Assembly (NCBI GenBank): GCA_934553255.1 | Contig: CAKTEZ010000003.1 | Coordinates: 21,012-85,011, forward strand | From: an uncultured Oscillospiraceae bacterium | Lineage (GTDB): Bacteria; Bacillota; Clostridia; Oscillospirales; Oscillospiraceae | Direction of reading: 5' to 3' | Length of the DNA: 64,000 nucleotides | Part shown: in pieces, positions 15,980 to 50,306 of the stretch | Layout of the letters: every line of letters begins with the position of its first letter | Numbering within the stretch: position 1 is the first letter of the stretch | Made by a program: the position numbers and the translations under genes | Notes under the pieces: generated by a model | The model's input: only the letters and a program-made list of their open reading frames with translations | What the model was told of the DNA's origin: nothing | Databases searched by the model: none

Positions 15980-16273
15980 ATGCGGAAAAAGGCGACCCGT
16001 GAGCGGGTGGTGCAGAGGCTTTATGAAATGGCGCTGGGGCGCGCGAACGACGCGGTGTGGCTGGCCTATTTTCAGGAGCCGACGGAGGAGAACATCAAAA
16101 AGCTGGACCTCGGCGCGGTGGCGGAGTTCCGCCGCAGCAACCTCGGAAGCGTGGAGATCCGCTTCATCGACCGCGTGAAGGCGCTGCAGGCGCTCGCCGA
16201 GCTGCTCAGCGGCGAGGGCGGCGAGGCTGAGGAATTCCTGCGCGCGATGGTGCAGGCGGAGGAGGGCGCGTGA
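15980..16273 (+). CDS. Short small-terminase-like subunit
   Basis: A 97-residue protein placed where xtmA, the small terminase subunit, lies in PBSX. The second half, with VEIRFIDRVKALQALAELL, resembles the C-terminal part of Terminase_2-type small subunits that ends near the large-subunit-binding tail. The usual N-terminal helix-turn-helix that recognises pac or cos DNA is not evident, and the protein is shorter than the roughly 150-260 residues typical of the family. The start at 15980 follows GAGGGGAAGGA; the longer frame from 15851 begins with low-complexity Arg/Gly/Thr sequence and is rejected. The stop overlaps the terminase large gene by 4 bp. The identification rests mainly on position. 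Confidence 0.6.
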   Translation: MRKKATRERVVQRLYEMALGRANDAVWLAYFQEPTEENIKKLDLGAVAEFRRSNLGSVEIRFIDRVKALQALAELLSGEGGEAEEFLRAMVQAEEGA

Positions 16274-17523
16274 GAGAGACGGCGGGCTTTTCCCCCAAGC
16301 AGCGGTTGGCGTTTTTGTGGTGGGCAAAGCCGGAGTACGCGGACTATGAGGCGGTCATCTGCGACGGGGCGGTGCGCTCGGGCAAGACGCTGTCGATGGG
16401 GCTTGGCTTTTTCTACTGGGCGATGTGGCGCTTCAACGGCATGCAGTTCGCCCTGTGCGGGCGGAGCGCGGGGGCGCTGCGGCGCAACCTGCTCAACACC
16501 GTGCTGCCGAAGCTGCGGGCGCTGGGCTTCTCCTGTGAGGAGAGACGGAGCGAGCGGCTGCTGGTGGTGCGCTGCCGCGGACGCGAAAACCGATTTTACC
16601 TTTTCGGCGGGGCGAACGAGGCGAGCGCGGCGCTCATTCAGGGCATGACGCTGGCGGGGGCGGCGTTCGACGAGGTGGCACTAATGCCGCGCTCGTTCGT
16701 GGAGCAGGCCTGCGCGCGCTGCTCGGTGGAGGGGAGCCGCGTGTGGTTCAACTGCAATCCCGAGGGACCGCAGCATTGGTTCTATCGGGAATGGATACTG
16801 CGCGCGGCGGAGCGCAGGGCGCTTTACCTCCGCTTCACGATGGAGGATAACCCCGTTTTGAGCGAGCGCATCCGGCGGCGCTACGAGAGCGCGTACAGCG
16901 GCGTATTTTACCGCCGCTTCGTGCAGGGCGAGTGGGTGACGGCGGAGGGCCGCATCTACGATTTCTACGAGCCGGAGGAATACGCGCAGGACATGCCGGA
17001 CGAGCCGTGGGAGAGGCTGCGCGTATCGGTGGACTACGGCACGGTGAACCCGACGAGCATGGGGCTGTGGGCGCTCAAGGACGGCGTGTGGTATCGCGTG
17101 GACGAATATTATTACGATTCGCGCGCGGCGGGACGGCAGAAAACGGACGAGGAATATGTGGACGCGCTGTGCGAGCTGACGCGGGGACGGAGGATCGAAC
17201 GGCTGCTGGTGGACCCGTCGGCGGCGAGCTTCATCGAGACGCTGCGGCGCAGAGGGTTTTCCGTGGCGCGCGCCAACAACGCCGTGGCGGACGGGCTGCG
17301 GGTGACCGCCGATCTGCTCAAACGGAGGAAGATCGTGATCTGCCGGAACTGCACGGACTGCCTGCGGGAGATCGCGCTCTACCGCTGGGCAGACGGCGGC
17401 GGACACGACGCGCCGCGCAAGGAGGACGATCACGCGATGGACGAGATGCGCTATTTTGCCATGTCTGTGGCTGCGCGGCGCACGGCGATGCCGACGGTGC
17501 GAGCGGTGGAGCGCGCGACATGA
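16270..17523 (+). CDS. Terminase large subunit (PBSX/XtmB family)
   Basis: A 417-residue DNA-packaging motor. The ATPase half has Walker A GAVRSGKT (residues 33-40), and FDEVA (133-137) carries the Walker B acid and catalytic Glu. The RNase-H-like nuclease half supplies D255 (SVDYGTVNPT), D315 (LLVDPSAAS) and D391 (HAMDEMRYF), all intact. It translocates DNA into the prohead through the portal and cuts it. The start is GTG at 16270, inside the stop of the preceding gene (GTGA). Motor and nuclease appear functional, which argues against random decay. Confidence 0.92.
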   Translation: MRETAGFSPKQRLAFLWWAKPEYADYEAVICDGAVRSGKTLSMGLGFFYWAMWRFNGMQFALCGRSAGALRRNLLNTVLPKLRALGFSCEERRSERLLVVRCRGRENRFYLFGGANEASAALIQGMTLAGAAFDEVALMPRSFVEQACARCSVEGSRVWFNCNPEGPQHWFYREWILRAAERRALYLRFTMEDNPVLSERIRRRYESAYSGVFYRRFVQGEWVTAEGRIYDFYEPEEYAQDMPDEPWERLRVSVDYGTVNPTSMGLWALKDGVWYRVDEYYYDSRAAGRQKTDEEYVDALCELTRGRRIERLLVDPSAASFIETLRRRGFSVARANNAVADGLRVTADLLKRRKIVICRNCTDCLREIALYRWADGGGHDAPRKEDDHAMDEMRYFAMSVAARRTAMPTVRAVERAT

Positions 17524-18710
17524 AGAAGGAGGAGAGCAGGAAGATGCGATGGGGGAAGAAACAGAGGAACGGCGGCGCGCCCGCCGCGGTGCAGGTGCGC
17601 GAGGGGAGCGTGCAGCCCTTTTCGGCGCTGGGCGGCTACGTGCCGCTCGGCGGCGCGGACGTGGCGCTCTACCGCAGCATTCGCGAGGCGGTGCCGCTGG
17701 TGGACGCGGCGGTGGGGAAGCTGGTGCGTCTGTGCGGCGGCGTGCGGGTGCGCTGCGGGGACGCTCACGCGGAGGAGGAACTGGACGAATTTCTGCGTGC
17801 GGTGGACATTGGACGTGGGCAGACGGGGTTCAACGCCTTTTTGGAGAGCTATCTGGACTCGCTGCTGACCTGCGGACGCGCGGTGGGCGAGGCCGTGCCG
17901 GACGCGGAGGGGCGAGACATCGCGGCGGTGCTGTGTCACCGCGTGGAGCAGGTGCAGCTGCGCGAGGGCGCGACGGCATTGGACACGCGCTTCTGGGGCT
18001 ATGACCGCGCGGGTCGGCTGCGCGAGCTGCCGCGGCAGGAACTGGTGCTGTTCACGCCGCTCGCGCCGGAGCCGGAAAATCCCTACGGCGTTTCGCTGCT
18101 GCGCTCGATGCCGTTTATGAGCGAACTGCTGGTGAAGATCTACTACGCGATGGGACAGAACTGGGAGCGCTGCGGAAACGTGCGCTTTGCGGTGGTCTAC
18201 AAGCCGCAGGGTGAGGAGACGGACAGCACGCTCGCCCGCGAGCGGGCGGAACTTCTCGCGCAGGAATGGGGCGGCGCGATGCGCGCGGCGCGCAGCGGGA
18301 GCGTGCGCGACTTTGTGAGCGTAGGCGATGTGAGCATCCGCGCCATCGGCGCGGACAATGTGATGCCGGACAGCGAGGTACCGGTGCGCCAGATCCTCGA
18401 GCAGCTGGTCGCCAAGACAGGGCTGCCTCCGTTTTTGCTGGGGCTGAGCTGGTCATCCACCGAGCGCATGAGCAGTCAGCAGGCGGATATGCTCACGAGC
18501 GAGATCACGGCGCTGCGCCGCTCGCTCACGCCGATGGTCGAGCGCGTGTGCCGCCTGTGGCTGCGGCTGCACGGCTACGGCTGCCGCTTCGCCGTGGAGT
18601 GGGACGACATCAATTTGCAGGACATGGTCGAGGAGGCCAGAGCCGAGCTGTACCGCGAGCAGGCGCGGAAGCTGCGGCAGGAAAATGACAAAAGGGAGAA
18701 AGCGACATGA
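17520..18710 (+). CDS. Phage portal protein (PBSX XkdE-like)
   Basis: A 396-residue portal subunit; twelve copies form the DNA channel at the head vertex. The C-terminal segment TGLPPFLLGLSWSSTERMSSQQ, then the helical wing and a charged tail, is typical of the PBSX/SPP1-like portal group. The first 40 residues are basic and flexible. The start at 17520 overlaps the terminase stop (ATGA) and has GGTGGAGCG nearby. The larger frame beginning at 16932 is an antisense-free shadow of the terminase gene. Confidence 0.88.
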   Translation: MKKEESRKMRWGKKQRNGGAPAAVQVREGSVQPFSALGGYVPLGGADVALYRSIREAVPLVDAAVGKLVRLCGGVRVRCGDAHAEEELDEFLRAVDIGRGQTGFNAFLESYLDSLLTCGRAVGEAVPDAEGRDIAAVLCHRVEQVQLREGATALDTRFWGYDRAGRLRELPRQELVLFTPLAPEPENPYGVSLLRSMPFMSELLVKIYYAMGQNWERCGNVRFAVVYKPQGEETDSTLARERAELLAQEWGGAMRAARSGSVRDFVSVGDVSIRAIGADNVMPDSEVPVRQILEQLVAKTGLPPFLLGLSWSSTERMSSQQADMLTSEITALRRSLTPMVERVCRLWLRLHGYGCRFAVEWDDINLQDMVEEARAELYREQARKLRQENDKREKAT

Positions 18711-19624
18711 CGGAGGAAAGAAAGGCGCAGAGCGCCGCTGTGACGGCGGAGGAGCTGGCGCGCATCAACCGCTTTGCCAAAAAGGAGCTGAGCGCGGAGG
18801 AGGTCTACACCTTCTCGGTGAAGCTGTGCGACAACGAGGTGGACCGCGACTTTGAGCGCTTCGACCGCGAGGCGCTGGCAAAGCTTGCCGAGCTGTTCGT
18901 CGGCAGGACGGGCATTTTCGACCACAGCTGGTCGGCGCTCGGGCAGAGCGCGCGCATCTACCGCACGGAGGTGGTCGAGGAGGAGAGGACGATGGCCGCG
19001 GGCGAAAAATACTGCTGGTGCAAGGGCTGGGCGTATATGCTGCGGACGGAGAAGAACGCCGAACTGATCGCGGAGATCGAGGGCGGCATCAAGAAGGAAG
19101 TGAGCGTGGGGTGCAGCGCGGGCAAGAGCATCTGCTCCATCTGCGGCAAAAGCATCGCCGAATGCGGGCATGAGCGCGGAAAGGAGTACGGCGGGAGGCT
19201 CTGCTACGCGACGCTAGGCGACATCACGGACGCCTACGAGTGGAGCTTTGTGGCCGTCCCCGCGCAGCGCGGCGCGGGCGTGGTCAAGCGCTTCGGACAG
19301 GGAGAGGGTTCGCTCAAGGCGCTGGTGCGCGCGAGCGGCAGCGGCGCGCAGCTGCGCGAGCTGGAGCAGCTGGAAAAGCTGGCGGGCATGGGCCGAAGTT
19401 ACCTCGAAGCGCTGCGCGGCGAGGTGAAGCGGCTGCTGCTGGTGAGCGAGGAGACGCTCGACGGCGCGGTGGCAGAGCGTGTGGCGGGCAGGCTCGACGA
19501 GGCGGAGCTGCTGGAGCTGAAGAAGGTGTTCGGCGCGCGCTCGGCGAAAAAGCTGGGGCTGAATGTACAATGCCTCGCCGCGCACGGCGCGGACGCCGAG
19601 GACGGACAGGACTTCCGCGTATGA
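18707..19624 (+). CDS. Prohead protease / scaffold-like protein (XkdF-like)
   Basis: A 305-residue protein in the position of the head maturation protease. It contains the EVSVGCS segment (residues 131-137), followed by a Cys/His cluster C143-x2-C146, C153, H155 and C166, then AYEWSFVAVPAQRGAGVVK, which is characteristic of prohead proteases of clostridial PBSX-like phages. The C-terminal third is helical and may act as scaffold. It would trim capsid or scaffold during maturation. The Cys/His group suggests a bound metal. The start overlaps the portal stop (ATGA). Confidence 0.78.
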   Translation: MTEERKAQSAAVTAEELARINRFAKKELSAEEVYTFSVKLCDNEVDRDFERFDREALAKLAELFVGRTGIFDHSWSALGQSARIYRTEVVEEERTMAAGEKYCWCKGWAYMLRTEKNAELIAEIEGGIKKEVSVGCSAGKSICSICGKSIAECGHERGKEYGGRLCYATLGDITDAYEWSFVAVPAQRGAGVVKRFGQGEGSLKALVRASGSGAQLRELEQLEKLAGMGRSYLEALRGEVKRLLLVSEETLDGAVAERVAGRLDEAELLELKKVFGARSAKKLGLNVQCLAAHGADAEDGQDFRV

Positions 19625-19700
19625 GGCGGGAGAGGAAAGAACGGTCCGACGGGGTGGGGACGCCCCTTGGGATAGAAAGAACGATCTAAGGAGGAGACAG

Positions 19701-20051
19701 ATGAACATTTCTTATCAGGGCATCGGCGCGTGCTGCGCGACCTTCGCGTGCGAGAACATGAGTGAGGGCGCGCTGGTCAAGGTGTCGGCGAGCGGCACGG
19801 TGGAGGCGTGCGCGGAGAACAACGACTTCTGCGGCGTGGTGCTGGCGGTCGGCCGCGACGGAAAGGCCTGTACCGTGCAGCTTGGCGGTCTGGTGACCGT
19901 GCCGTACAGCGGCGAGACCGCGCCCGCGCTCGGTTATTCCGCGCTGGCCGCGGACGACGCGGGCGGCGTGAAGGCTGTGACGACCGGCGGACGCAGCCAT
20001 CTTGTGCTGGAGCAGGACACGGGCGCAGGCACCGTGACCATCATGCTTTAA
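19701..20051 (+). CDS. Head decoration/cement-like protein
   Basis: A 116-residue, beta-rich, Gly/Ala/Val-rich protein immediately before the major capsid gene, a place where many phages encode a capsid-stabilising protein. The sequence of short strands separated by Gly and Asp turns fits a beta-barrel of the DUF2190 or decoration type, but no diagnostic motif is visible. AGGAGGAGACAG precedes the ATG at 19701. The function is inferred from position and composition. Confidence 0.6.
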   Translation: MNISYQGIGACCATFACENMSEGALVKVSASGTVEACAENNDFCGVVLAVGRDGKACTVQLGGLVTVPYSGETAPALGYSALAADDAGGVKAVTTGGRSHLVLEQDTGAGTVTIML

Positions 20052-20065
20052 GAGGAGGAGAGACC

Positions 20066-21094
20066 ATGGCATACAATTACGAAAACCTGAAGCTGGAAAA
20101 GGGAATGTACGCCCAGAGCGGCAGAAGCTTTTCCAAGGTCCTGGAGAGCATTGACCCCAGTGAAAATTACCGCGGCACGCCGCTGGAGGGCATGGACGCA
20201 TTTCAGCGCCAGCTCAAGCGCTTTGACATCCATGTCAAGGGCGCGGGCAGCGACATGGTGGAGAAATTCTTCCACACGAGCGACAGCGCCGTGCTGTTTC
20301 CGGAGTTTGTTTCGCGCGTGGTCCGTCAGGGCATGGAGAGCGACATTCTGCCCGACATCACCGCGACGACCACCCATTTTGAGGGTATGGACTACCGTAC
20401 CATCGCATCCGTGCCGAGCGAGGACGACAAGAAGCTGCGCCGCGTGGAGGAGGGGGCGGAGATCCCAACGACAAGCATCCGCACGCAGGAAAATCTGGTG
20501 AAGCTCCACAAGCGCGGGCGTATGCTCGTGGCAAGCTATGAGGCCATCCGCTTCCAGCGTCTGGACCTCTTTTCCGTCACGCTGCGCCAGATCGGCGCGT
20601 ACATCGCGCGTATGCATCTGGAGGACGCCGTGGAGGTTTTGCTCAACGGCGATGGCAACAACAACGCCGCCGAGAAGTACAAGGTCGGCGCCAGTCCCAT
20701 CGGCGGTACGGCGGGCAGCCTGAGCTATGAGGCGCTGCTGGACTTCTGGGCAAAATTCGACCCCTACTGCATGAACACCATGCTGGTGTCGAATGATGTG
20801 ATGCTCAAGATGCTCAAGCTGTCGGAGTTCCAGAACCCGCTGACGGGGCTGAATTTCCAGGGGACCGGCACGCTCTCTACGCCGCTGGGCGCAAAGCTGC
20901 TGCGTACCACTGCCGTTCCCGCGGGCAAGCTGATCGGTCTTGACCGAAACTATGCGCTTGAGCGCATCTGCGCGGGCGATGTGACGGTCGAGTACGACAA
21001 GCTTATCGACCGCCAGATCGAACGCGCGGCCATCACGAGCATCTCCGGCTTTGCCAAGCCGTATAAGGACGCCTCCAAGGTGCTGAGCATCTGA
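20066..21094 (+). CDS. Major capsid protein (HK97 fold, XkdG-like)
   Basis: A 342-residue protein with the HK97-type arrangement: a short N-terminal arm, the EFVSRVVRQGMESDILPDI region, an extended E-loop region with acidic residues, a central P-domain helix, and a C-terminal ending GFAKPYKDASKVLSI. No long scaffold delta domain is fused to it, matching a separate protease/scaffold gene. A strong AGAGGAGGAGAG site supports the start at 20066 and high expression. Confidence 0.88.
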   Translation: MAYNYENLKLEKGMYAQSGRSFSKVLESIDPSENYRGTPLEGMDAFQRQLKRFDIHVKGAGSDMVEKFFHTSDSAVLFPEFVSRVVRQGMESDILPDITATTTHFEGMDYRTIASVPSEDDKKLRRVEEGAEIPTTSIRTQENLVKLHKRGRMLVASYEAIRFQRLDLFSVTLRQIGAYIARMHLEDAVEVLLNGDGNNNAAEKYKVGASPIGGTAGSLSYEALLDFWAKFDPYCMNTMLVSNDVMLKMLKLSEFQNPLTGLNFQGTGTLSTPLGAKLLRTTAVPAGKLIGLDRNYALERICAGDVTVEYDKLIDRQIERAAITSISGFAKPYKDASKVLSI

Positions 21095-21128
21095 GCGCGG
21101 CGGCGCGGACACGGAAGGAGGCGGGCGA

Positions 21129-21497
21129 ATGGACGAGGAGATCCTGAAAACGGCGAAGAGCATCTGCGCCTGCGCCGAGGAGGACGGGCCGCTGCTCGAG
21201 CGCCTTTGCGCGGCGAGTGCGCGCGCTCTCAGAGGCAGCCTGCGCGCGGGCGTTTCGCCGGAGGACTGCGAGGGAGCGTTTGTATGCGCGAGCGCATGGC
21301 TCGCCGCCGCGGCGCTGACCGAGGCAAGGCTTGCGGGCGGAGAGGAGCTTTCCGCGCTGCGCGCGGGCGATGTGACGGTCACGATGAAGAGCGCGGGAGG
21401 CAGCGAGCGCGCGGCGGCGCTGCGCCGCAGCGCCCGACAGCTGATGGCGCCGTATACGGAGGGAGGCGGCTTTTTCTTTTGCGCGGTGAAAGGATAA
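21129..21497 (+). CDS. Head-tail connector (adaptor) protein
   Basis: A 122-residue, all-helical protein right after the capsid gene, where PBSX-like phages encode the gp6/gp15-type adaptor that docks under the portal. Its first helix has several Cys and Ala; the ending RRSARQLMAPYTEGGGFFFCAVKG resembles adaptor C-termini that insert into the connector. The assignment is positional with moderate sequence support. Confidence 0.65.
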   Translation: MDEEILKTAKSICACAEEDGPLLERLCAASARALRGSLRAGVSPEDCEGAFVCASAWLAAAALTEARLAGGEELSALRAGDVTVTMKSAGGSERAAALRRSARQLMAPYTEGGGFFFCAVKG

Positions 21498-21502
21498 AGA
21501 GC

Positions 21503-21817
21503 ATGATCGCGCAGGCGTTCCGGCAGTACGGGACGCTTGTGACGGTAGAACACGGAGCGGAGCGCACACAGGCGCACGGCTTTGTGCAGCCCATTACGGC
21601 GGAGAGCGGCGGCGAGCCGTTTTCCGTCGGGCCGCTGGGCGCGGCGGACGGACGCTGCTGGCGCTATCTGGGCGAAGCGGGCGTATGCGTGGAGCAGGGC
21701 GACCGGATACAGTACGGCACGAAGCGCTACCGGGTGCGCCGCGCGGAACGCGTGGACGCGGGCGGCATGACGACGCATTACTGGGCGGTGCTGGACCGAG
21801 AGGAGGCAGTACGGTGA
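21503..21817 (+). CDS. Head-closure/stopper protein (XkdH-like)
   Basis: A 104-residue, beta-rich protein in the place of the head-closure stopper that plugs the DNA channel. Features include an ITAESGGEPFSVGPLG stretch and the C-terminal DRIQYGTKRYRVRRAERV strands, as in minor-capsid or head-tail joining proteins. The start at 21503 follows AAAGGATAAAG. Its stop overlaps the next GTG start. Confidence 0.62.
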   Translation: MIAQAFRQYGTLVTVEHGAERTQAHGFVQPITAESGGEPFSVGPLGAADGRCWRYLGEAGVCVEQGDRIQYGTKRYRVRRAERVDAGGMTTHYWAVLDREEAVR

Positions 21818-22314
21818 CGACGAGCGGACAGGTGCGGGACGCGATCGTGGCGCGGCTGAAGGCGGCCGGACTCGACGCGATCCCCGCATACGAGGAGGAG
21901 CGCTTCCGCGAGCGCAGCGCGAGCGTTATCTCGGTGGGCGCAAGACAGACGGAGCTGACGAAGGCGGGTATGCTGGACTATCTCGGCGAGCGGTACGATG
22001 CGGAGCTGGGGTGCATGGCCGAGGTGTACGGGCGCAGGCTGCTCCTGACGGCGGCGGTGGACATTTATGCGCCGCGCCGCAGGGGGGCGCGCGGCTGCGA
22101 GCAGACCGCCGAGGCCGCGGCGGAGGCGCTGATGACGGGTCTGCCGGACGGCTTGCAGATCGAGGAGATGTGCTGGGAGAAAACGGAATGGGACGCCGAG
22201 TACGGCGTGTTTGTGCGGCGAGGCACCGCGCGCTGCACCGCCTATTTCGTGGCGCAGGCAGACGAGAGGAGCGCGGTGCTGACGGATTTTATTTTGAAAG
22301 GTGTGAAGCAGTAA
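21814..22314 (+). CDS. Tail terminator/neck-like protein
   Basis: A 166-residue protein between the stopper and the sheath, the usual place of the tail terminator in contractile phages. It starts with an amphipathic helix, has a basic loop rich in Arg and Gly, and ends in beta strands. The start is GTG at 21814 overlapping the previous stop (GTGA), and the sheath gene begins directly after its stop. No unique motif is visible. Confidence 0.58.
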   Translation: MTTSGQVRDAIVARLKAAGLDAIPAYEEERFRERSASVISVGARQTELTKAGMLDYLGERYDAELGCMAEVYGRRLLLTAAVDIYAPRRRGARGCEQTAEAAAEALMTGLPDGLQIEEMCWEKTEWDAEYGVFVRRGTARCTAYFVAQADERSAVLTDFILKGVKQ

Positions 22315-23364
22315 GTGAGCAACACAGTAGTACATGAGCATCCAGGCGTGTATTCCGCCTACGACGCTTCGAGTACGATCGGCGGAAAGAAAATGAGTCG
22401 CGTGGTCGGCGTGGCGGCGGTCGCGGCAAGGGGTACGGCGAATGAGGTGGTGACTCTGACCTCCTACGCCGAGGGCGTGACCGCTTTCGGCGAGGACACA
22501 GAGGGCAGCGTCGGTATGGCGGCCGTGCTGCGCGCGCTGTATGAAAACGGCGCGGCGGTGGTTAAGGCGGCGGCGGTCGGCAAAACGAGCGCGGGCGCGG
22601 ACGACTATGAAAGCGCGTTCAAGGCGCTGGAGGAGTGCGAGGGCATCGATACGGTCGTGTGCGACAGCGCGGACGCGGATGTGCAGAAGAAGCTGAAGGA
22701 GAGCGTGGAGAGCGCGTCCGGCAAGCAGCGCGAGCGCATCGGCGTCGTCGCGGGCGGCGCAGAGGAAACGGCGGCGGAGCTGGTGACGCACGCCGCAAAG
22801 CTCGACAGCGAGCGCATGGTACTCGTCGCGCCGGGCGATGTGCGTACCGCGGCGGCTGCCGCGGCGGTCATCGCGGCGGAGGAGGACCCCTCCGTGCCGG
22901 TCAACGGCGCGGTACTCAAGGGCTTTTCGACCCTCAGCGCACGCTACGACGACACGCAGATCGACCTGCTGGTTCGCGGCGGCGTGACGCCGCTGGAGGT
23001 GAGTGCGGGCGAGGTGAGCATCGTGCGCGGCATCACGACCCGCACGACCACCGGCGGCGCGGCGGACAAGACCTGGCGCGAACTGACGAGCATCCGCATC
23101 GTGGACGATGTGATCCCATCGCTGCGCGCCTCGCTGCGCGCCCGCTTCGCGCGCAGCCGCAACACCGAACAGACGCGTGCTGCCATTCGCTCGCAGGTGA
23201 TCGTGGAGCTGGAAAACAAGCGCGCGCAGGAGATCATCGACAGCTTCGGCGAGGTGAGCGTGCGCGCGTCGGAGGACGATGCGACGGTGTGCGTGGTGGA
23301 ATTCAGCTTTGCGGTGGCACACGGTCTCAACCGCATTTATCTGACCGCGCACATTACGATGTAA
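22315..23364 (+). CDS. Contractile tail sheath protein (XkdK-like)
   Basis: A 349-residue sheath subunit, the defining gene of a contractile tail. The N-terminus HEHPGVYSAYDAS is the typical sheath arm, and the C-terminal domain (about residues 230-349) with the ISIVRGITT-type strand, the TSIRIVDDV segment and the NRIYLTAHI ending is the conserved sheath core. The outer domain is small. The start is GTG at 22315 touching the preceding TAA. Confidence 0.9.
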   Translation: MSNTVVHEHPGVYSAYDASSTIGGKKMSRVVGVAAVAARGTANEVVTLTSYAEGVTAFGEDTEGSVGMAAVLRALYENGAAVVKAAAVGKTSAGADDYESAFKALEECEGIDTVVCDSADADVQKKLKESVESASGKQRERIGVVAGGAEETAAELVTHAAKLDSERMVLVAPGDVRTAAAAAAVIAAEEDPSVPVNGAVLKGFSTLSARYDDTQIDLLVRGGVTPLEVSAGEVSIVRGITTRTTTGGAADKTWRELTSIRIVDDVIPSLRASLRARFARSRNTEQTRAAIRSQVIVELENKRAQEIIDSFGEVSVRASEDDATVCVVEFSFAVAHGLNRIYLTAHITM

Positions 23365-23376
23365 GGAGGGAACACG

Positions 23377-23766
23377 ATGGCAAGCATGACGATCCCAACG
23401 AGCAGGGACATTTATCTGGAGCTGAACGGGAAAAAGCTGGCGGTGGTGCAGAGCTACAGCGCCAAGGCGACTCGCACGGGACGCGAGATCGAGGCCTTCG
23501 GCGAGAGCGAGCCGGTGGCGACGGTCGGCGGGCAGATGCGCTACGCGCTGGAGCTCAGCCGCCTGTATGCGACCGACGAGGCCATCAGCGACGGCGTCAA
23601 TTTCTACGAGCTGGAGGATTTTTCCGTGGTGATCTGCCGTCCCGGCAAGCGCATCATCTACAGCCGCTGCCGCTGGAACAACATCGAGGAGCTGGGCAAG
23701 CTCGGCGATCCGGTGGTGGAGAAGGTGTCGGTCATCTCCTGTAAGCGTCTGGAGACGAACGCCTGA
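23377..23766 (+). CDS. Tail tube protein (XkdM-like)
   Basis: A 129-residue, beta-rich protein right after the sheath. The IEAFGESEPVATVGG segment and the LYATDEAISDGVNFYEL region are typical of the XkdM tail-tube family, which forms the inner tube driven through the envelope on contraction. AGGAGGGAACACG precedes the ATG. The stop overlaps the next start (TGATG). Confidence 0.88.
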   Translation: MASMTIPTSRDIYLELNGKKLAVVQSYSAKATRTGREIEAFGESEPVATVGGQMRYALELSRLYATDEAISDGVNFYELEDFSVVICRPGKRIIYSRCRWNNIEELGKLGDPVVEKVSVISCKRLETNA

Positions 23767-24539
23767 TGACGGACGAAGCGGTTTTCGCGGCGCGGAAAAG
23801 GCGCGTGACCGAGCAGCTCGGCGAGGCGGTATTCGCGGCGGTCGGACTGATGGTGCGGCAGTATCTGGAAGCGCCCGATGTAAAGTTTGACGGGGCAGAC
23901 TTCGACGCCGCGGCGCAGGAGGACCGTGCGGAGACAGCGGACGCCGGACGCGGGGAAAACGAGAGCTTTGACATGGCGCGCTATCAGCGGCTTCAAGCGG
24001 AGGCGTCGGCGGCAGAGCGCGGAGAGAGCGAAGACCGCGCCGATGCGGAGGAGGGAAACGCGGCGCACCGACAGCGCGCGGAGGCGGCAGACGGCAGCGG
24101 AGAGACCGCGCCGACGGCGGAGACAGACACCGGACGCGGCGCGGAAAACAAACGCCCGCACACCGCGCTGCCGCAGAACACGGAGCCGCAGAGCAGGAAA
24201 AGGGCTGACGCGGGGGAAGCGGACGATCGGCGCCGCTCTTTGCGGGAGAGCGGGGAAAAGCCGGACGGGGACGAGAGCGCGGCTGAGGAGGCCGTGCGGC
24301 CGAAGCATCGCACGGCGGAGGAAGCGAAAGCCCTGAGGAGCGTTCGGCACACTACGCGTGCGGCGGTATGGGAACGGCCCGCGGGAGCGGCTGAGGAGAG
24401 CCGCACGGCGCGGAACGCGGGAGCGGCAGCGTTTTTCGAGCGGACGGAGAGGGGCGAGCCTCTCCGCGCCGCGCGCGGGGTGAGCGAGGAGATCGAGCGC
24501 GACGCGCGGCGCTATGACGGGAATTTTTATCTTTACTGA
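23766..24539 (+). CDS. Charged low-complexity protein in the tail chaperone/tape-measure slot
   Basis: A 257-residue protein where PBSX has the assembly chaperone xkdN and the long tape measure xkdO. The first 60 residues are folded-looking (helical, with VFAAVGLMVRQYL). The middle (about 50-235) is extremely rich in Glu, Arg, Ala, Asp and Gly, with little hydrophobic content and probably disordered. The end ERDARRYDGNFYLY looks conserved. There is no other gene before the LysM protein, so no tape measure of ordinary length (several hundred to over 1,000 residues) exists. It may be a very short ruler, an assembly chaperone, or a fusion of remnants. Confidence 0.55.
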   Translation: MTDEAVFAARKRRVTEQLGEAVFAAVGLMVRQYLEAPDVKFDGADFDAAAQEDRAETADAGRGENESFDMARYQRLQAEASAAERGESEDRADAEEGNAAHRQRAEAADGSGETAPTAETDTGRGAENKRPHTALPQNTEPQSRKRADAGEADDRRRSLRESGEKPDGDESAAEEAVRPKHRTAEEAKALRSVRHTTRAAVWERPAGAAEESRTARNAGAAAFFERTERGEPLRAARGVSEEIERDARRYDGNFYLY

Positions 24540-24554
24540 GAGGGGGCGGGGCGC

Positions 24555-25112
24555 ATGAGACTGACACCGATGCGCTATAAGGACTATATCTGGCCGAACA
24601 ATCCGGAGAGCTACCGCATTTCGTTCCGCCGCTCCGTGGCGGCGCACAAGCTGCCGGGCGGGACCTATGCCATGCAGGACCTCGGAACGGTCTGGCGCGT
24701 GCTGGAGGGCGAGGGGGCGTTCGCGGGAGCGGGCGCGTACGAGGAGTTCAAAAAGCTGGCGACGGTGTTTTATCAGGGCGGCGCGGGCATTCTGGTGCAT
24801 CCGGTGTGGATGACGACGCGGGCCTACTTTGTGGAACTGGAGGCTTTGCAGGAGCCGACGCCGGACTATGTGCGCTATCGCTTTGCCTTCTGGGAGACCC
24901 TTGAGAGCGCGGCGGCGCTCAAGCGCGTGGACGAGGCGGCGCAGGAGAGCGCGGCGGTGCGGGATACGCGGGAGCATACCGTGGCGCAGGGCGAAACGCT
25001 GTGGGGCATCGCGGCGCGGTACGGCACGACGGTGCAGAAGCTGCTGGCGGCGAACCCGCAGATCAAAAACGCCAATCTCATTTACGCGGGAGAGCGGGTG
25101 AGACTGGCGTGA
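24555..25112 (+). CDS. LysM-containing tail/baseplate hub protein (XkdP-like)
   Basis: A 185-residue protein with an N-terminal domain of the contractile-phage XkdP/gp53 type and a C-terminal LysM repeat (about residues 138-184: EHTVAQGETLWGIAARYGTTVQKLL, ending YAGERVRL). LysM may help seat the hub on peptidoglycan or join baseplate components. Its stop overlaps the GTG start of the next gene. Confidence 0.82.
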   Translation: MRLTPMRYKDYIWPNNPESYRISFRRSVAAHKLPGGTYAMQDLGTVWRVLEGEGAFAGAGAYEEFKKLATVFYQGGAGILVHPVWMTTRAYFVELEALQEPTPDYVRYRFAFWETLESAAALKRVDEAAQESAAVRDTREHTVAQGETLWGIAARYGTTVQKLLAANPQIKNANLIYAGERVRLA

Positions 25113-26041
25113 CGGGACGGGTGACGACCGCGCAGGGCGCGGTGTATGAGCTGCCGACGCTGCTGTCGTGGCGGCTGCGGCGCACGGGCGGCGTTCCGTG
25201 CGACAGCTTTACGGTGCAATGCCTTTACAGCGCCGCGATGACGGATGTGTTCAGGTGCGCCTGCCGCTTCACGGCGGTCGAGGACGGCGCGGCGGTGTTC
25301 GTCGGCGTGGTGGACGAGTGGCGGGCGGAAATGGACGGAACGGGTTTGGTGCTGACGATGAGCGGGCGCGGCATGGCCGCGCTGCTGCTCGACAACGAGG
25401 CGGAGAGCATGACCTACCAGCGCGCGGCGCTGAGCGAGATCGTGCGCGATCATGTGACGCCGTGCGGCGTCATGTGCCGGACGCGCGGGGAGGTCCGCAC
25501 GGTGGGTGAGTACACGGTGGCAAGCGGCGCGAGCCGCTGGAAGGCGGTAGAGGGCTTTGCGAACCGCTGCGGTCTGCTGCCGCAGTTCACGAAGGACGGC
25601 GTGCTGTGCTTCCGCGCGGCGGACGAAGGCGTGCGGCACATACTGGGCGCGGGAGCGCCCATTGTGAGTGCGGCGTACCGCGACAGACGGTACGGCGTGC
25701 TTTCGGAGGTCGTGGCGATCGACCGGACGAGAGGAACGCGCCAGACCGTGCGGAACGAGGCGTTTCTCGCGCGGGGCGGAAGCTGCCGCCGCGTCGTATA
25801 TGTGCCGTCGCGGGGCGGAGACGAGCTGCGCTATACGGGACGCTATCAGATCGAAAAGAGCGCGGAGGGGGCGCGGGAACTGACGCTGACGCTGGCGGGG
25901 CGCGCCGCGGCGGAGCCGCAGGACTATGTGGAGCTGCGGCTGGAGAGGCTGGGGCTTGCCGGAACATATCGCGTGAGCGAGACGACGCGCGCGCTGACGG
26001 CGCGCGGCGAGACGACGGAGCTGGTGCTGTGGGAGGAATGA
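25109..26041 (+). CDS. Baseplate hub protein (XkdQ-like, gp27/gpD fold)
   Basis: A 310-residue protein that corresponds to XkdQ, the hub that joins the tail tube to the spike. The segment SRWKAVEGFANRCGLLPQFTKDGVLCF is a hallmark of this family (a gpD-like domain). The start is GTG at 25109 overlapping the LysM gene by 4 bp; the longer frame from 25001 reads only the LysM gene out of frame. Confidence 0.8.
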   Translation: MTGRVTTAQGAVYELPTLLSWRLRRTGGVPCDSFTVQCLYSAAMTDVFRCACRFTAVEDGAAVFVGVVDEWRAEMDGTGLVLTMSGRGMAALLLDNEAESMTYQRAALSEIVRDHVTPCGVMCRTRGEVRTVGEYTVASGASRWKAVEGFANRCGLLPQFTKDGVLCFRAADEGVRHILGAGAPIVSAAYRDRRYGVLSEVVAIDRTRGTRQTVRNEAFLARGGSCRRVVYVPSRGGDELRYTGRYQIEKSAEGARELTLTLAGRAAAEPQDYVELRLERLGLAGTYRVSETTRALTARGETTELVLWEE

Positions 26042-26045
26042 GAGA

Positions 26046-26444
26046 ATGTGGATAGCGGGACGCCTGCGCGGCGCGCAGACGGAGGAGAGCGTGCAGGGAG
26101 AATGCGGGACGGTGACCATTGGCGGAAGTGCGGCGGGCGTGCTGATGCGCGGCGAGGAGCGCGGTCTACCGACGGCGGCGCCGGGCGGTTACGCATGGCG
26201 GCCGAGAGGCGGCGAGCGAGTGTTGGTACTCAAAAGCGGGACGCGCGGCGAGGAACGCTGCGTGGCGCTGTCGCTGGACACGGCGGCAAAGCAGGCGGGA
26301 TTGGCGGACGGTGAGATCTGCCTTTACAGCGCCGGAGGCGCGAGCGTCTGCCTGCGGAACAATGGGCGCGTGGAGATCAAGGGACGGCTTTTTCTGAATG
26401 GAAGGGAACTGAGGCTGCCGGAGGAGGACGACGATGGAGCTTAA
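26046..26444 (+). CDS. Baseplate spike protein (gpV-like, XkdR position)
   Basis: A 132-residue, beta-rich protein with an OB-like N-terminal half (GTVTIGGSAAGVLM, then PRGGERVLVL) and a short C-terminal strand repeat, SVCLRNNGRVEIKG, that resembles the beta-prism of tail spikes. It would form the membrane-piercing tip. It is short for a spike and has no visible metal-binding HxH tip. The end overlaps the gp25-like gene by 11 bp. Confidence 0.68.
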   Translation: MWIAGRLRGAQTEESVQGECGTVTIGGSAAGVLMRGEERGLPTAAPGGYAWRPRGGERVLVLKSGTRGEERCVALSLDTAAKQAGLADGEICLYSAGGASVCLRNNGRVEIKGRLFLNGRELRLPEEDDDGA

Positions 26445-26793
26445 AATGAGGAACGGGGACTATGTTCCCGACGGCATCGGCGGAGAGAAGCGCGCGGTCG
26501 GAACGGAGGAACTGCTGGCAAGGGCGCTGTTTCGCCTGAGCGTGCGGCGGGGGAGCTTTCCATTCCTGCCGGAGTTGGGCAGCGAACTGCATCTTCTCGG
26601 GCGGGAGAAGCCGAGCGCGCGGCGCGCGGCGGCGAAGCAGTATGCCGCCGCCGCGCTGGCGGAAGAGAGCGCGCTGACGGTGGAGGATGTGGAACTGACG
26701 GAGTGCGGCGAGGGGCTTTGCGCCCTGCATGTGACGCTGCGGCTCGACAGCGGAAAGGCCGCGGCGCTGGAGCTGACGGTGGGAGGAGAGTGA
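26434..26793 (+). CDS. Baseplate wedge protein (gp25/GPW family, XkdS-like)
   Basis: A 119-residue protein matching the gp25-like wedge: GTEELLARALFRLSVRRGSFPFLPELGSELH, followed by a helix and two strands. Such proteins prime sheath assembly at the baseplate. It is flanked by the spike and baseplate J genes exactly as in PBSX. Confidence 0.8.
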   Translation: MELKMRNGDYVPDGIGGEKRAVGTEELLARALFRLSVRRGSFPFLPELGSELHLLGREKPSARRAAAKQYAAAALAEESALTVEDVELTECGEGLCALHVTLRLDSGKAAALELTVGGE

Positions 26794-27858
26794 ATGATGA
26801 GGGAAGTGAAAACGATCTATGAGGGGCTGCGCGAAAGCTTTGCCGAGCGCGCGGGCTTTCCGCCGAGCGAGGGCTGCGACAGCGCGGTGCGCCTGTATGC
26901 GCTGGCGGCGGAGCTGCAGTCGCTGCTGATGCAGGCGGACTGGGTGCTGGACCAGAGCTTTCCGCAGACGGCGAGAGGGACCTATCTTGATTATCATGCC
27001 GAGACGCGGGGTCTTACGCGCGTGCCCGCCGAGCGCGCGCACGGCACGCTGCGCTTTGCGGCGGCGGGCGAGATGGCGGCAGACCGGCCCATTGCAAAGG
27101 GAACGGTCTGCATGACGGCGGAGGGCGTCCGCTTCGAGACCACGGAGGACGCGGTGCTTTCCGCGGGCGAGACATGGGTGGACATTTCTGCCCGCGCCGT
27201 GGAGGCGGGGGCGGGCGGAAACGCCGTCGCGGGGACGGTAACGGTGCTGTCGGCGCTGCCGGTGGGCATTGTGCAATGCACGAATACGGCGGCATTTTCC
27301 GGCGGACGCGACGCCGAGGACGACGAGACGCTGCGCGAACGCATCCTTGCAAGCTACCGCCGTCTGCCGAACGGCGCGAACGCCGCCTACTACGAGCAGG
27401 AAGCGCTGCGCTTTGCGGGCGTGGCGGCGGCAAAGGCGGTGGGGCGCGCCCGCGGCATTGGGACGGTAAATGTGATCGTCGCGGCGCAGGAGGGTATGCC
27501 TTCTCAGGCGCTGCTGGCTGCGGTAGAGACGGAGCTGCAGAAAAAGCGTGAGATCGCAGTCGATCTCAAGGTGTTTGCTCCGACGGAGAGGGCTGTGGCG
27601 GTAAGCGCGGCGCTCAAGACGGCGAGCGGCTACGGCTTCGCCGAGGTCAAGACGCGCGCCGAGGCCGCGCTGCGCGCGCACTTTACCGGTGCGCTGCTGG
27701 GAAGGAGCGTTCCTGCGGCGGAGCTGCTGACGCTGCTCTACAGCGTGGAGGGCGTGGAGAATGTACACCTCGCCGCGCCGACGGCGGATGTGACGGCGGC
27801 GGCGACGGATCTGCCGACGCTCGGGACGCTGACGCTCAGCGAACTGACGGAGGCGTAG
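26794..27858 (+). CDS. Baseplate J-like protein (XkdT-like)
   Basis: A 354-residue Baseplate_J protein. It shows the conserved DQSFPQTARGTYLDYHAETRGL near residue 60, the central GGRDAEDDETLRERIL segment and NGANAAYYEQEALRFAGVAAAKAV, typical of gpJ/XkdT wedge proteins. It links the hub to the outer wedge. The adjacent in-frame Met at residue 2 could be the true start. Confidence 0.88.
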   Translation: MMREVKTIYEGLRESFAERAGFPPSEGCDSAVRLYALAAELQSLLMQADWVLDQSFPQTARGTYLDYHAETRGLTRVPAERAHGTLRFAAAGEMAADRPIAKGTVCMTAEGVRFETTEDAVLSAGETWVDISARAVEAGAGGNAVAGTVTVLSALPVGIVQCTNTAAFSGGRDAEDDETLRERILASYRRLPNGANAAYYEQEALRFAGVAAAKAVGRARGIGTVNVIVAAQEGMPSQALLAAVETELQKKREIAVDLKVFAPTERAVAVSAALKTASGYGFAEVKTRAEAALRAHFTGALLGRSVPAAELLTLLYSVEGVENVHLAAPTADVTAAATDLPTLGTLTLSELTEA

Positions 27859-27862
27859 GACG

Positions 27863-28438
27863 ATGGGCTATTACGATTATCTGTGCGAACTGCTGGGGCC
27901 GCTGCGCGTGTATGAACTGCGCGAAAACAGTCTGAGCGGCGCGGAACTGGCGGCGGCGGGCAAGGGATTGGACGAGGCGGCGGCGCGGCTGGCCTACGCC
28001 GAACGGGAGGGGATCCTGATGACGGCAGAGGACGAGGGGCTTGCACGCCGCGAACGGCTGTTTTCCCGCCTCGGTGTGCGTACGACGCCGGAACTGCGCC
28101 GCCTTGCCATAGCGTCGCTCAGCAGAGTGGATGCGGACGGCTTTACGCCCGAGGCGATCAACCGGACCATCAGCGGCTGCGGCATCCGCGCTGTGGCAGA
28201 GGAGACGGACAAGTATGGCACCGTGCGCGTGACATTCCCGCAGACGGCGGGCGAACCGGAGGACTTCGAGCGTATCCGCGAGATCGTTCTGGACATCATG
28301 CCCTGTCATCTGCAGGTGGATTTCTATCTCCGCTATCTCACATGGGATGAGTGCGAGGGACAGCGCTTTACCTGGGAGAAGGCAGAGGCGGCGGGTCACA
28401 CATGGAAAAGCTTCGAGCTGGCGGTGCCGACGGACTGA
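27863..28438 (+). CDS. Baseplate/tail protein (XkdU-like, DUF2313 family)
   Basis: A 191-residue protein of the gpI/XkdU type, usually the last baseplate component before the tail fibres. Recognisable parts are the N-terminal YYDYLCELLGPLRVYEL and TPEAINRTISGCGIRAVAEE. In PBSX xkdV (fibre) follows; here the next gene is a holin-like protein, so the fibre module is missing. Confidence 0.75.
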   Translation: MGYYDYLCELLGPLRVYELRENSLSGAELAAAGKGLDEAAARLAYAEREGILMTAEDEGLARRERLFSRLGVRTTPELRRLAIASLSRVDADGFTPEAINRTISGCGIRAVAEETDKYGTVRVTFPQTAGEPEDFERIREIVLDIMPCHLQVDFYLRYLTWDECEGQRFTWEKAEAAGHTWKSFELAVPTD

Positions 28439-28501
28439 CGCGGAACGCGGACGGGCGCGGGCGGATACAATAATGAAGAAGAGACAGGGGGAGGGAACGG
28501 A

Positions 28502-28690
28502 ATGAAGGAACTGCTTGGAAAACGCATGGCAAATCTTTTTACCGTCAAGAGCATCGTGACCATTACGCTGACGATCACATTCTGCGTGCTGGAGTGCTGC
28601 GGGTCGCTGTCGCAGGACTATATGACGATCTACACGGCGGTGATCGGCTTCTATTTCGGAACGCAGACCAAGAGGGAAGAAGATGCTTGA
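28502..28690 (+). CDS. Small holin-like membrane protein
   Basis: A 62-residue protein with two hydrophobic segments (about residues 14-34 and 38-54) and the pattern FTVKSIVTITLT, then YMTIYTAVIGFYFGTQT, which recurs in small membrane proteins of clostridial prophages next to endolysins. It probably permits release or export of the endolysin. The start follows GGGGGAGGGAACGG and its end overlaps the endolysin gene by 8 bp. Confidence 0.72.
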   Translation: MKELLGKRMANLFTVKSIVTITLTITFCVLECCGSLSQDYMTIYTAVIGFYFGTQTKREEDA

Positions 28691-29330
28691 CAGCAGGGAC
28701 ATCGGAGCGCTGCGCGCGGATGTGGCGGAGAACTGTCGGACGCTGCTGCGCCGTGCGGAGGCGCGGGGGCTGCGGCCGTTGGTGGTGCAGACGGTACGCG
28801 ACGCGGAGTATCAACGCTATCTCGCTGCGGCGGGGTTCGCGGCAAAGGGCGCGACGACGCCGAGCTTCCACGCCGCCGATGCGGGCCTGGCGTTCGACAT
28901 ATGCAAAAATGTGCGCGGACATGAGTATGACGACCCCGCGTTTTTTGAGGAGATGGGAAGGCTCGGCAAGGAGATGGGCTTTACCTGGGGCGGCGATTGG
29001 CGAAGCTTTCCGGACCGGCCGCACTTTCAATGGGACGGCGGCGGGCTTTACAGCTCGGCCATGGTCCGCGCGGGACGGTACCCGCCGCCGATGCCGCGCT
29101 TTTCAGAGGAGGAAACGATGACACAGGAGCAGTTCAACGCCCTGATGGAGGGCTATTGGCGGTCGCTGGCGGAAAGGGAGCCGTCGGACTGGAGCGCGGA
29201 GGCGCGCCGATGGGCCGAGGAAAACGGACTGATCGTGGGGGACGGAAACGGCAACAAGCAGTACAAGGCATTTGTCACACGCGAGCAGATGGCGGTTTTT
29301 CTCAAGCGGCTGGCGGAAAGAAAGGAATAA
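28683..29330 (+). CDS. Endolysin: M15-type peptidase with C-terminal SLH-like domain
   Basis: A 215-residue lysis enzyme. Residues 1-130 form an M15 (VanY/Ply118-like) zinc peptidase: H63 and D72 in SFHAADAGLAFDI, then GGDW (D105) and RPH (H114). Residues 146-215 form an S-layer-homology-like domain (WSAEARRWAEENGLIVGDG, then FVTREQMAVFLKRL) that would bind the cell wall. An internal ATG at 29118 preceded by GAGGAGGAAACG lies exactly at the domain border, so the 70-residue SLH part may also be made alone. The gene is followed by a strong terminator. Confidence 0.85.
   Translation: MLDSRDIGALRADVAENCRTLLRRAEARGLRPLVVQTVRDAEYQRYLAAAGFAAKGATTPSFHAADAGLAFDICKNVRGHEYDDPAFFEEMGRLGKEMGFTWGGDWRSFPDRPHFQWDGGGLYSSAMVRAGRYPPPMPRFSEEETMTQEQFNALMEGYWRSLAEREPSDWSAEARRWAEENGLIVGDGNGNKQYKAFVTREQMAVFLKRLAERKE
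29118..29330 (+). CDS. Possible internal start: free SLH-like wall-binding domain of the endolysin
   Basis: In the same frame as the endolysin, ATG at 29118 has a near-perfect ribosome binding site (GAGGAGG, six bases before the ATG). It would yield a 70-residue protein consisting only of the SLH-like domain. Internally initiated binding-domain fragments are known for several endolysins; here it is an inference from the sequence. Confidence 0.45.
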   Translation: MTQEQFNALMEGYWRSLAEREPSDWSAEARRWAEENGLIVGDGNGNKQYKAFVTREQMAVFLKRLAERKE

Positions 29331-50006: not shown

Positions 50007-50306
50007 TCAAAGCGTGTAGCGCAGACACTTGTATAAGCGGCCCTTGGCGCGCACGATGGTGCGCGAAACGGTGGATTTGTTTACGCCAAGCTCCCGTGCG
50101 ATCTCCGTCACGCTTTTGTTCTGCTCAAAATTCATGCGAAGCATGAGCCGCTGACGCTCGGTCAGCTCCTCCTGACGGGCGACGCGCAGATTGCGCTTGA
50201 GACGGCGCAGGTCGCTCTCGTTGTCCTGCGCGTTGGCGCGCAGCCACGCCGCCATGTCGCCGTAAAACTCGTTGTTGCGAATGCTATAGGGTGTATTTTT
50301 TGTCAC
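50007..50306 (-). CDS. Sigma-70 region 4-like regulator (99 aa)
   Basis: A 99-residue protein whose C-terminal half (about residues 48-95) is a sigma region 4 helix-turn-helix: LTERQRLMLRMNFEQNKSVTEIARELGVNKSTVSRTIVRAK. There is no region 2. Proteins of this size and type drive late genes in Firmicutes phages (for example Xpf of PBSX and ArpU-like factors). The start is GTG at 50306 with AAGGAG; it overlaps the preceding gene by 23 bp. Its target is unknown; the phage-like cluster at 16-29 kb lacks a visible sigma-A promoter and is a candidate. Confidence 0.75.
   Translation of the reverse strand: MTKNTPYSIRNNEFYGDMAAWLRANAQDNESDLRRLKRNLRVARQEELTERQRLMLRMNFEQNKSVTEIARELGVNKSTVSRTIVRAKGRLYKCLRYTL

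What the first reader, a model, noticed from the sequence alone, without database searches (positions are those of the whole stretch)
15980..29330. A mobility-free, PBSX-order particle cluster that could be a gene-transfer agent
Seen: 22 tight plus-strand genes for terminase, portal, protease, capsid, connectors, contractile tail, baseplate and lysis, all apparently open, with motor and nuclease motifs of the terminase intact. Integrase, excision, replication and repressor genes are absent, no flanking repeat is visible, and base use looks host-like. Known: PBSX of Bacillus and true GTAs package random host DNA and lack autonomous transfer genes. Inference: this is a domesticated particle, either PBSX-like or GTA-like, in an Oscillospiraceae-type host.
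Basis: partly seen in the sequence, partly recalled or inferred. Interest (0 to 1): 0.85.

Follow-up and report, generated by a model that had tools for sequence, protein, structure and literature searches.

The report
Inherited DNA-packaging particle of gut Clostridia
This gut bacterium carries a phage-like particle that has become an inherited part of its genome; related bacteria across their order carry the same gene cluster, which mostly keeps its DNA-packaging head while its tail shrinks, as one would expect of a machine that bacteria use to move their own DNA.

Summary
It is not a decaying prophage. The closest genomes have it at the same site (amino-acid permease / gctA). Its capsid gene is in 128 of 300 family and 71 of 394 order genomes sampled, nearly always single-copy. 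Cluster genes track host RpoB (r 0.76-0.93, 25 genomes; 16 of 22 tree splits shared); prophage portals do not (r 0.08, 10 genomes). All 19 genes tested have dN/dS below 1.

There is no normal tape measure (only a 257-aa polar protein) and no tail fibre. And relatives come in three forms: contractile, sheathless, head-only. Portal and capsid stay in all typed loci and terminase in all but three, while the tail is lost. That fits a gene-transfer-agent-like, DNA-packaging function better than PBSX-style killing. The window's small terminase lacks its N-terminal domain, as reported for GTAs. Packaging and transfer of host DNA were not testable here. Closest published case: FpGTA of Faecalibacterium; homology to it could not be tested.

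The parts
15980..16273 (+). TerS, terminase small subunit, 97 aa; N-terminal (DNA-binding) domain absent
   Evidence: Pfam Terminase_2 matched only at profile 59-128 of 141, below cut-off; N-terminal domain found in 38 of 65 loci, not here
16270..17523 (+). TerL, terminase large subunit (ATPase and nuclease)
   Evidence: TIGR01547 over cut-off; phrog_2 1e-44
17520..18710 (+). portal protein
   Evidence: phrog_30703 1e-157
18707..19624 (+). putative head maturation protease/scaffold (invariant His73, Ser133 and a Cys/His cluster)
   Evidence: phrog_16951, unknown function; invariant columns; AF2 pLDDT 85.5 but no PDB fold match at E 0.001, so role inferred from position
19701..20051 (+). head decoration/structural protein
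   Evidence: phrog_4588 8e-27
20066..21094 (+). major capsid protein
   Evidence: Pfam PF25209, phrog_3922 1e-117
21129..21497 (+). head-tail adaptor-like
   Evidence: weak phrog_477, position
21503..21817 (+). head closure-like
   Evidence: weak phrog_161, position
21814..22314 (+). tail completion/terminator-like
   Evidence: phrog_25177 8e-38, unknown function; position
22315..23364 (+). contractile tail sheath
   Evidence: Pfam Phage_sheath_1 and 1C over cut-off
23377..23766 (+). tail tube
   Evidence: phrog_27038 2e-53, unknown function; position as XkdM (recalled)
23766..24539 (+). 257-aa polar protein in the tape-measure position; looks like a fusion of a chaperone C-terminus and the mini tape seen in relatives
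   Evidence: no Pfam/PHROG match; matches a mini-tape model trained on relatives incl. L028 and L029, not the chaperone model; gravy -1.11; relatives
24570..25112 (+). LysM tail protein (XkdP/gpU-like)
   Evidence: Pfam LysM and DNA_circ_N
25121..26041 (+). baseplate hub (XkdQ-like)
   Evidence: phrog_177 6e-36
26046..26444 (+). baseplate protein (XkdR position)
   Evidence: phrog_25991 9e-23, unknown function
26434..26793 (+). baseplate wedge (XkdS/GP46-like)
   Evidence: weak PF07409, phrog_180
26794..27858 (+). baseplate J (XkdT)
   Evidence: Pfam Baseplate_J 7e-52
27863..28438 (+). Mu gp48-like tail protein (XkdU); last structural gene
   Evidence: phrog_521 3e-15
28502..28690 (+). small protein, putative holin
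   Evidence: phrog_13256 1e-17, unknown function; position
28683..29330 (+). endolysin, M15 peptidase
   Evidence: Pfam Peptidase_M15_4 4e-11
14142..15563 (-). left border: amino-acid permease, conserved neighbour
   Evidence: Pfam AA_permease_2; same neighbour in L028 and L029 at 87%
29704..30789 (+). right border: gctA-like CoA transferase, conserved neighbour
   Evidence: Pfam CoA_trans; downstream of the cluster in L028, L029 and L060

Best explanation
A domesticated, vertically inherited DNA-packaging particle of gene-transfer-agent type. Proposed steps: (1) the host switches on the 13.4-kb operon in some cells (inferred); (2) capsids assemble on portal and the putative scaffold/protease (inferred from homology and position); (3) TerL, aided in the window by a TerS without its N-terminal domain, fills them with chromosomal DNA without site preference (inferred); (4) a stub of contractile tail, length set by the 257-aa mini tape, with a LysM/hub baseplate is attached (inferred); (5) holin and endolysin release the particles (inferred); (6) particles deliver DNA to kin (the least certain step). 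Shown by computation: gene content, intactness, selection, vertical descent, absence of mobility genes, reduced tape measure, and retention of head genes while the tail is lost in relatives.
For: Collinear cluster in Oscillospiraceae; capsid in 128 of 300 family genomes, 127 with one match, and in 71 of 394 order genomes, two of them weak or partial. Mantel r with RpoB 0.76-0.93 over 10 genes, 24-25 genomes, p=0.001 each; 16 of 22 splits shared with the RpoB tree, 0 of 13 well-supported RpoB splits contradicted, label shuffles share 0.2 on average. Control: prophage portals r=0.08, p=0.31, in 10 genomes where the cluster portal gives 0.83 and the capsid 0.95. dN/dS 0.04-0.76 in 57 of 57 gene-pair tests; synonymous divergence mostly like that of three host genes. 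No tyrosine integrase on the cluster contig in 7 of 7 genomes. TerS N-terminus absent in 27 of 65. Architectures A 37, B 15, C 15 of 67 typed loci. Two tape-measure families are absent over cut-off in 11 of 23 cluster-bearing genomes. Published: GTA-like packaging in Oscillospiraceae particles without an identified cluster (PMC12946183, section 9 read).
Against: No direct evidence of particles, packaged DNA or transfer for this cluster. TerS keeps its N-terminal domain in 38 of 65 loci, so non-specific packaging is not a family-wide inference. Three sister loci (L241, L242, L255) lack TerS/TerL at the site, and two of their genomes have no close TerL elsewhere, so packaging is not kept in every lineage. 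172 of 300 family genomes have no match even with a profile, so the element is often lost or limited to some genera. No receptor-binding protein is encoded, so delivery is unexplained. The regulator is unknown. Serine recombinases were not searched for.
Confidence: 0.75

Rival explanations
1. PBSX-like killing particle: it packages host DNA as PBSX does, but its use is to kill competitors through a contractile tail, not to transfer genes.
For: PBSX-family TerL; sheath, tube and baseplate under purifying selection here; lysis genes present; a -1 frameshift with a slippery A-run in the tail-chaperone gene in 10 of 10 loci with shifted frames suggests tails are still made in those relatives.
Against: Relatives drop the sheath (15 of 67) or nearly the whole tail (15 of 67) while keeping portal, putative protease and capsid in all, and TerL in all but three, the reverse of a tailocin. 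No tail fibre or long tape measure in the window.
Confidence: 0.15
2. Defective prophage on its way out, kept by chance.
For: No mobility genes; no match in 172 of 300 family genomes; lysis genes vary between relatives.
Against: Same order and open frames across an order; dN/dS below 1 in 57 of 57 tests; agreement with the host tree.
Confidence: 0.03
3. A satellite or capsid-forming island (cfPICI-like, recalled) that needs helper tails from prophages.
For: Head-only variants without tail genes (L079, L080, L197, L231 and others).
Against: No integrase near, vertical descent, own tail and baseplate in the window.
Confidence: 0.04
4. A domesticated particle with a non-transfer job, such as DNA disposal, public-goods release or a decoy.
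For: No receptor-binding protein in the cluster; tail reduction across the order.
Against: Baseplate genes are kept in A and B forms and under purifying selection in the window's clade.
Confidence: 0.1

Closest known systems
FpGTA I/II of Faecalibacterium prausnitzii (Borodovich et al. 2026, PMC12946183; abstract, section 8 part 1, sections 9, 10, 26 and passages read)
   Same: Related host group; TerS without obvious DNA-binding domain, TerL, portal, scaffold, capsid; no replication genes; portal and capsid accession numbers are two apart (RCH50851, RCH50849), like those relatives here in which one gene separates them; particles package host DNA.
   Different: FpGTA is described as podovirus-like with about 40-nm heads and a separate second operon for baseplate, fibre, receptor-binding protein and lysis; the window has one operon with a sheath and no fibre. 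Homology was not testable: no FpGTA sequence was in hand (one search did not find the genus).
PBSX of Bacillus subtilis (gene order recalled; packaging facts from passages of PMC12946183 and PMC7667829)
   Same: PBSX-family terminase; same late-gene order sheath, tube, chaperone position, LysM, hub, baseplate J, gp48-like; no mobility genes.
   Different: No long tape measure (PBSX XkdO about 1300 aa, recalled), no fibre genes; inherited across an order; tail lost in relatives; killing not known.
RcGTA and other alphaproteobacterial GTAs (recalled, plus statements in PMC12946183)
   Same: Immobile, vertically inherited, under purifying selection; TerS without DNA-binding domain.
   Different: Different phage ancestry (recalled); contractile sheath here; transfer not shown here.

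Membership tests
Gene transfer agent | no integration, excision or replication genes with the structural cluster | tested here: met
   serine recombinases not searched
Gene transfer agent | vertical inheritance under purifying selection | tested here: met
Gene transfer agent | small terminase lacking the N-terminal DNA-binding domain | tested here: met
   met in the window; only 27 of 65 loci in all
Gene transfer agent | particles package random host DNA | not testable with these tools
   needs particle DNA sequencing
Gene transfer agent | packaged DNA is delivered to recipient cells | not testable with these tools
   needs a transfer assay
PBSX-type element | PBSX-family large terminase | tested here: met
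   TIGR01547 163 bits, cut-off 105
PBSX-type element | full-length contractile tail with long tape measure | tested here: not met
   257-aa protein in the tape position; mini-tape open frames 129-298 aa in 48 relatives
PBSX-type element | tail fibre genes after the gp48-like gene | tested here: not met
   63 bp between gp48 and holin in the window; none seen by eye after gp48 in 10 flanks; L258 has a possible one, weak match only
PBSX-type element | kills strains lacking the element | not testable with these tools
   needs culture
FpGTA | capsid and terminase homologous to FpGTA I | not testable with these tools
   no FpGTA sequence in hand; one search did not identify a Faecalibacterium genome in the sample
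FpGTA | podovirus-like, no contractile sheath | tested here: not met
   sheath over Pfam cut-offs; sheathless relatives exist
Tailocin | head and packaging genes lost, tail kept | tested here: not met
   head and packaging genes intact
Satellite/cfPICI | integrase and island regulators beside the capsid genes | tested here: not met

The most novel reading that the evidence does not exclude
One GTA lineage, older than the families of its order, has descended with Oscillospirales and is losing its tail step by step: contractile with a mini tape (Oscillospiraceae), sheathless with baseplate (capsid kin in Acutalibacter, Neglectibacter, Hominenteromicrobium), head-only (capsid kin in Ruminococcus). 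The small terminase has lost its N-terminal domain several times in parallel. FpGTA is one tail-reduced branch, and this lineage is the unidentified source of the GTA-like packaging reported for Oscillospiraceae and Ruminococcus in human faeces.
Probability: 0.5. Interest if true: 0.92.

Novelty: new variant of a known kind. Interest (0 to 1): 0.82.

Why it matters
If it works as proposed, several families of gut Clostridia carry an inherited machine for exchanging chromosomal DNA, which would help explain the host DNA found in faecal virus fractions. It gives gene targets (capsid, terminase, portal) for a family where packaging was reported but no cluster was found, and its keep-the-head, lose-the-tail pattern makes it possible to test what part of a phage a GTA needs. 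It also shows that such loci are filed as viruses in public collections.

Tried and rejected
Rejected: decaying prophage (intact, selected, vertical); tailocin (head kept); tRNA- or repeat-flanked integration. An integrase-like hit 0.2-0.9 kb past the last cluster gene in L064 (E 8e-7) lies antisense to an ORF chosen by my codon model that reads like polyphosphate kinase; I take it as spurious but did not exclude it. One integrase in G232 is about 17-18 kb from the cluster.

Led nowhere: RNA families near the start; capsid structure model of low confidence, 52 pLDDT, not used; no PDB fold for the putative protease; promoter/terminator scan, 10 terminator-like sites against 10.8 in shuffles and 3 promoter-like against 1.6; search for a Faecalibacterium genome by a phage FP_Mushu gene, best identity over its length 78%, inconclusive. 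One search used RpoB in wrong frames and is discarded; one search replaces it. The strict motif count for TerS (21 of 65) is replaced by the HMM count (38 of 65).

Rows dropped: from the tree (68 rows) I left out L243 (a lone second capsid gene in G602) and L015 (a viral contig); L198 was in the tree but untyped, and L196 was typed A although its contig ends early. The 32 order-level loci come from 31 of the 71 matching genomes, picked by me; the named loci were found by patterns from the window's capsid; so architecture counts are not a random sample, and tail genes too far diverged for my models would be missed. Control portals: 10 of the 12 genomes with a portal over cut-off entered; two of the 10 rows had no similarity to the others.

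Literature searches: (nine); the one paper of substance for these bacteria is PMC12946183. Only open-licence PMC papers are held, so unseen reports are possible.
Full report
What is there. Twenty plus-strand genes between 15980 and 29330 form one operon-like block: small and large terminase, portal, a putative protease/scaffold, decoration protein, capsid, three connectors, sheath, tube, a 257-aa polar protein, LysM protein, hub, two baseplate proteins, baseplate J, a gp48-like protein, a small putative holin and an M15 endolysin. All 20 frames are open and third-position G+C is near that of host genes.

What is missing. Besides integrase, repressor and replication genes, there is no tape measure of normal size and no tail fibre. 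In relatives, the stretch between tube and LysM gene holds a chaperone-like ORF, in some a second overlapping ORF, and a short polar ORF ending in a conserved RRYDGGF-type tail; stop-to-stop frames of this mini tape are 129-298 aa in 48 loci. In the window the chaperone and mini tape appear fused into the 257-aa protein, since a mini-tape model (trained on relatives, L028 and L029 among them) matches and the chaperone model does not. At about 0.15 nm per residue (recalled) this would give a tail of some tens of nanometres at most. In 10 of 10 relatives where the two chaperone ORFs lie in different frames, the shift is -1 and a slippery A-run lies in the overlap; in two more loci they share one frame (only loci in which both ORFs were recognised by motif). 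This is the layout of lambda-type G/GT chaperones (recalled) and suggests that tails are made in those relatives. Tape-measure families PF10145 and PF20155 match over cut-off in 12 of 23 cluster-bearing genomes; 11 of 23 have neither. In 9 of those 12 the match is on another contig; in the single-contig genome G007 it is over 1.6 Mb away; for G311 and G315 I did not establish the cluster's contig number.

Same place, same history. In L028 (Oscillibacter valericigenes An907) and L029 (Oscillibacter sp. MSJ-31) the cluster lies between the same permease and gctA (Pfam names), with one extra gene before gctA in L028. L060 has gctA downstream, L030 and L068 a relative of the window's HAD-hydrolase gene upstream, and L196 has that hydrolase and genes that read as thymidylate synthase and DHFR beside it, all neighbours in the window. 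Eleven other loci share a sensor-kinase gene upstream instead, so the site has changed between subclades. Two records deposited as 'Bacteriophage sp.' look like host contigs: L196 as above and L197, whose flanks read as ribosomal-protein, rpoA and adenylate-kinase genes (names by my reading).

Vertical descent. Over 25 genomes, protein distances of ten cluster genes follow RpoB with r 0.76 (TerL) to 0.93 (capsid), p=0.001 each; the capsid's median distance is 0.27 against 0.20 for RpoB. The cluster tree shares 16 of 22 splits with the RpoB tree, none of 13 well-supported RpoB splits is contradicted by a well-supported cluster split, and shuffled labels share 0.2 on average. Prophage portals of the same genomes give r=0.08, p=0.31 (10 genomes), where the cluster portal gives 0.83 and the capsid 0.95. 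dN/dS between the window, L028 and L029 is below 1 in 57 of 57 tests: 0.04-0.15 for capsid, 0.23-0.27 for TerL, up to 0.76 for the decoration protein. Synonymous distances between window and relatives are 0.33-1.02 in the cluster (highest in the XkdR- and gp48-like genes) and 0.33-0.55 in three host genes (simple counting method). The 257-aa gene was not tested.

Spread. The capsid is found in 128 of 300 genomes of the family by single sequence and again in 128 of 300 by profile, once per genome except G262 with a second weak hit. Frames are open in all rows; the four stops flagged did not recur when the profile, which begins at the capsid's own start, was used. In the order, 71 of 394 genomes match, G608 and G671 only weakly or in part. 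Named proteins close to the query are Oscillibacter and Oscillospiraceae for the window's capsid, Hominenteromicrobium (88%), Neglectibacter (66%) and Acutalibacter (64%) for a sheathless form's capsid and Ruminococcus (56-57%) for a head-only form's capsid; the architecture of those named genomes was not looked at.

No mobility. A complete list of PF00589 integrases in seven genomes shows none on the contig that carries the cluster. A model of eight integrases that recovers 30 of 30 known integrase loci was run on the window, loci L001-L115 and 20 flank stretches of 20 kb from ten genomes: it gave one hit about 17-18 kb from a cluster and one, probably spurious, antisense hit in L064. In the 40 loci scanned only the L064 hit appeared. 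Serine recombinases were not searched.

Three architectures. Typed on 67 loci: A, with sheath, 37; B, without sheath but with baseplate J, 15; C, head genes with at most LysM/hub matches and a few unmatched ORFs, 15. On the tree of TerL, portal, putative protease and capsid this takes 6 changes against 26 in shuffles. Form A occurs in several deep branches (L260, L073, L244, L258), which suggests that the contractile form is old and tails were lost more than once; the root is not fixed. Portal, putative protease and capsid are present in all typed loci, and TerS/TerL in all but L241, L242 and L255; of those three genomes, one has a TerL elsewhere with a stop in it and two have none close. L258 keeps a short ORF after gp48 that looks fibre-like by eye but has only a weak PHROG match of unknown function. 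Selection thus seems to hold the head more strongly than the tail, the opposite of tailocins.

Small terminase. The window's TerS matches only the C-terminal part of Terminase_2. An HMM of the N-terminal domain, present in 38 of 65 loci, is not found in the window, L028, L029 and 24 others; this needs 8 changes on the tree. PMC12946183 reports a TerS without obvious DNA-binding domain for FpGTA. Loss of the domain fits packaging without a preferred start; that it causes this is inference.

Known work. Borodovich et al. 2026 (PMC12946183; abstract, section 8 part 1, sections 9, 10 and 26, and passages read) found GTA-like packaging in faecal particles from Ruminococcaceae, Oscillospiraceae (Onthomonas) and Christensenellaceae, searched four MAGs and found a strong GTA operon in one, a F. 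prausnitzii MAG. PBSX packages 13-kb host fragments but is reported to act like a bacteriocin (passages of PMC7667829). Nine searches found no report of a GTA cluster in Oscillibacter or of an order-wide family; only open-licence papers are held.

Verdict. A domesticated, vertically inherited DNA-packaging particle is well supported; random packaging and transfer are inferences to be tested. The most novel reading, one ancient GTA lineage of Oscillospirales that is losing its tail and includes FpGTA, is open.

Noticed in passing
L196 (MT835769.1), L197 (MT835508.1): Records deposited as 'Bacteriophage sp.' from human faeces look like bacterial chromosome contigs carrying this cluster beside host genes.
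   Followed up: yes
L001-L027: IMG/VR viral contigs, several about 13 kb long, hold this cluster, so domesticated clusters are catalogued as viruses.
   Followed up: partly
L014, L019, L022, L031, L058, L063, L066, L071, L072, L076 (between tube and LysM genes): A -1 frameshift with a slippery A-run joins two tail-chaperone ORFs; the second encodes a CPxC...CPVC cluster that resembles a zinc knuckle by eye.
   Followed up: partly
L241, L242, L255 (genomes G496, G602, G627): Sister loci keep portal, capsid and baseplate but lack the terminase genes; G602 also has a second lone capsid gene (L243).
   Followed up: partly
window 50007-50306 (-): Small sigma-70 region-4 protein resembling phage sigma factors, 21 kb from the cluster, near tRNA-Thr/Tyr; a possible but untested regulator.
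   Followed up: no
window 51192-51947 (+): Repressor with helix-turn-helix and S24 peptidase domains (phage-repressor-like), not linked to the cluster.
   Followed up: no
L186 near 19.6 kb (genome G232): An integrase about 17-18 kb downstream of the cluster, probably a separate element.
   Followed up: no
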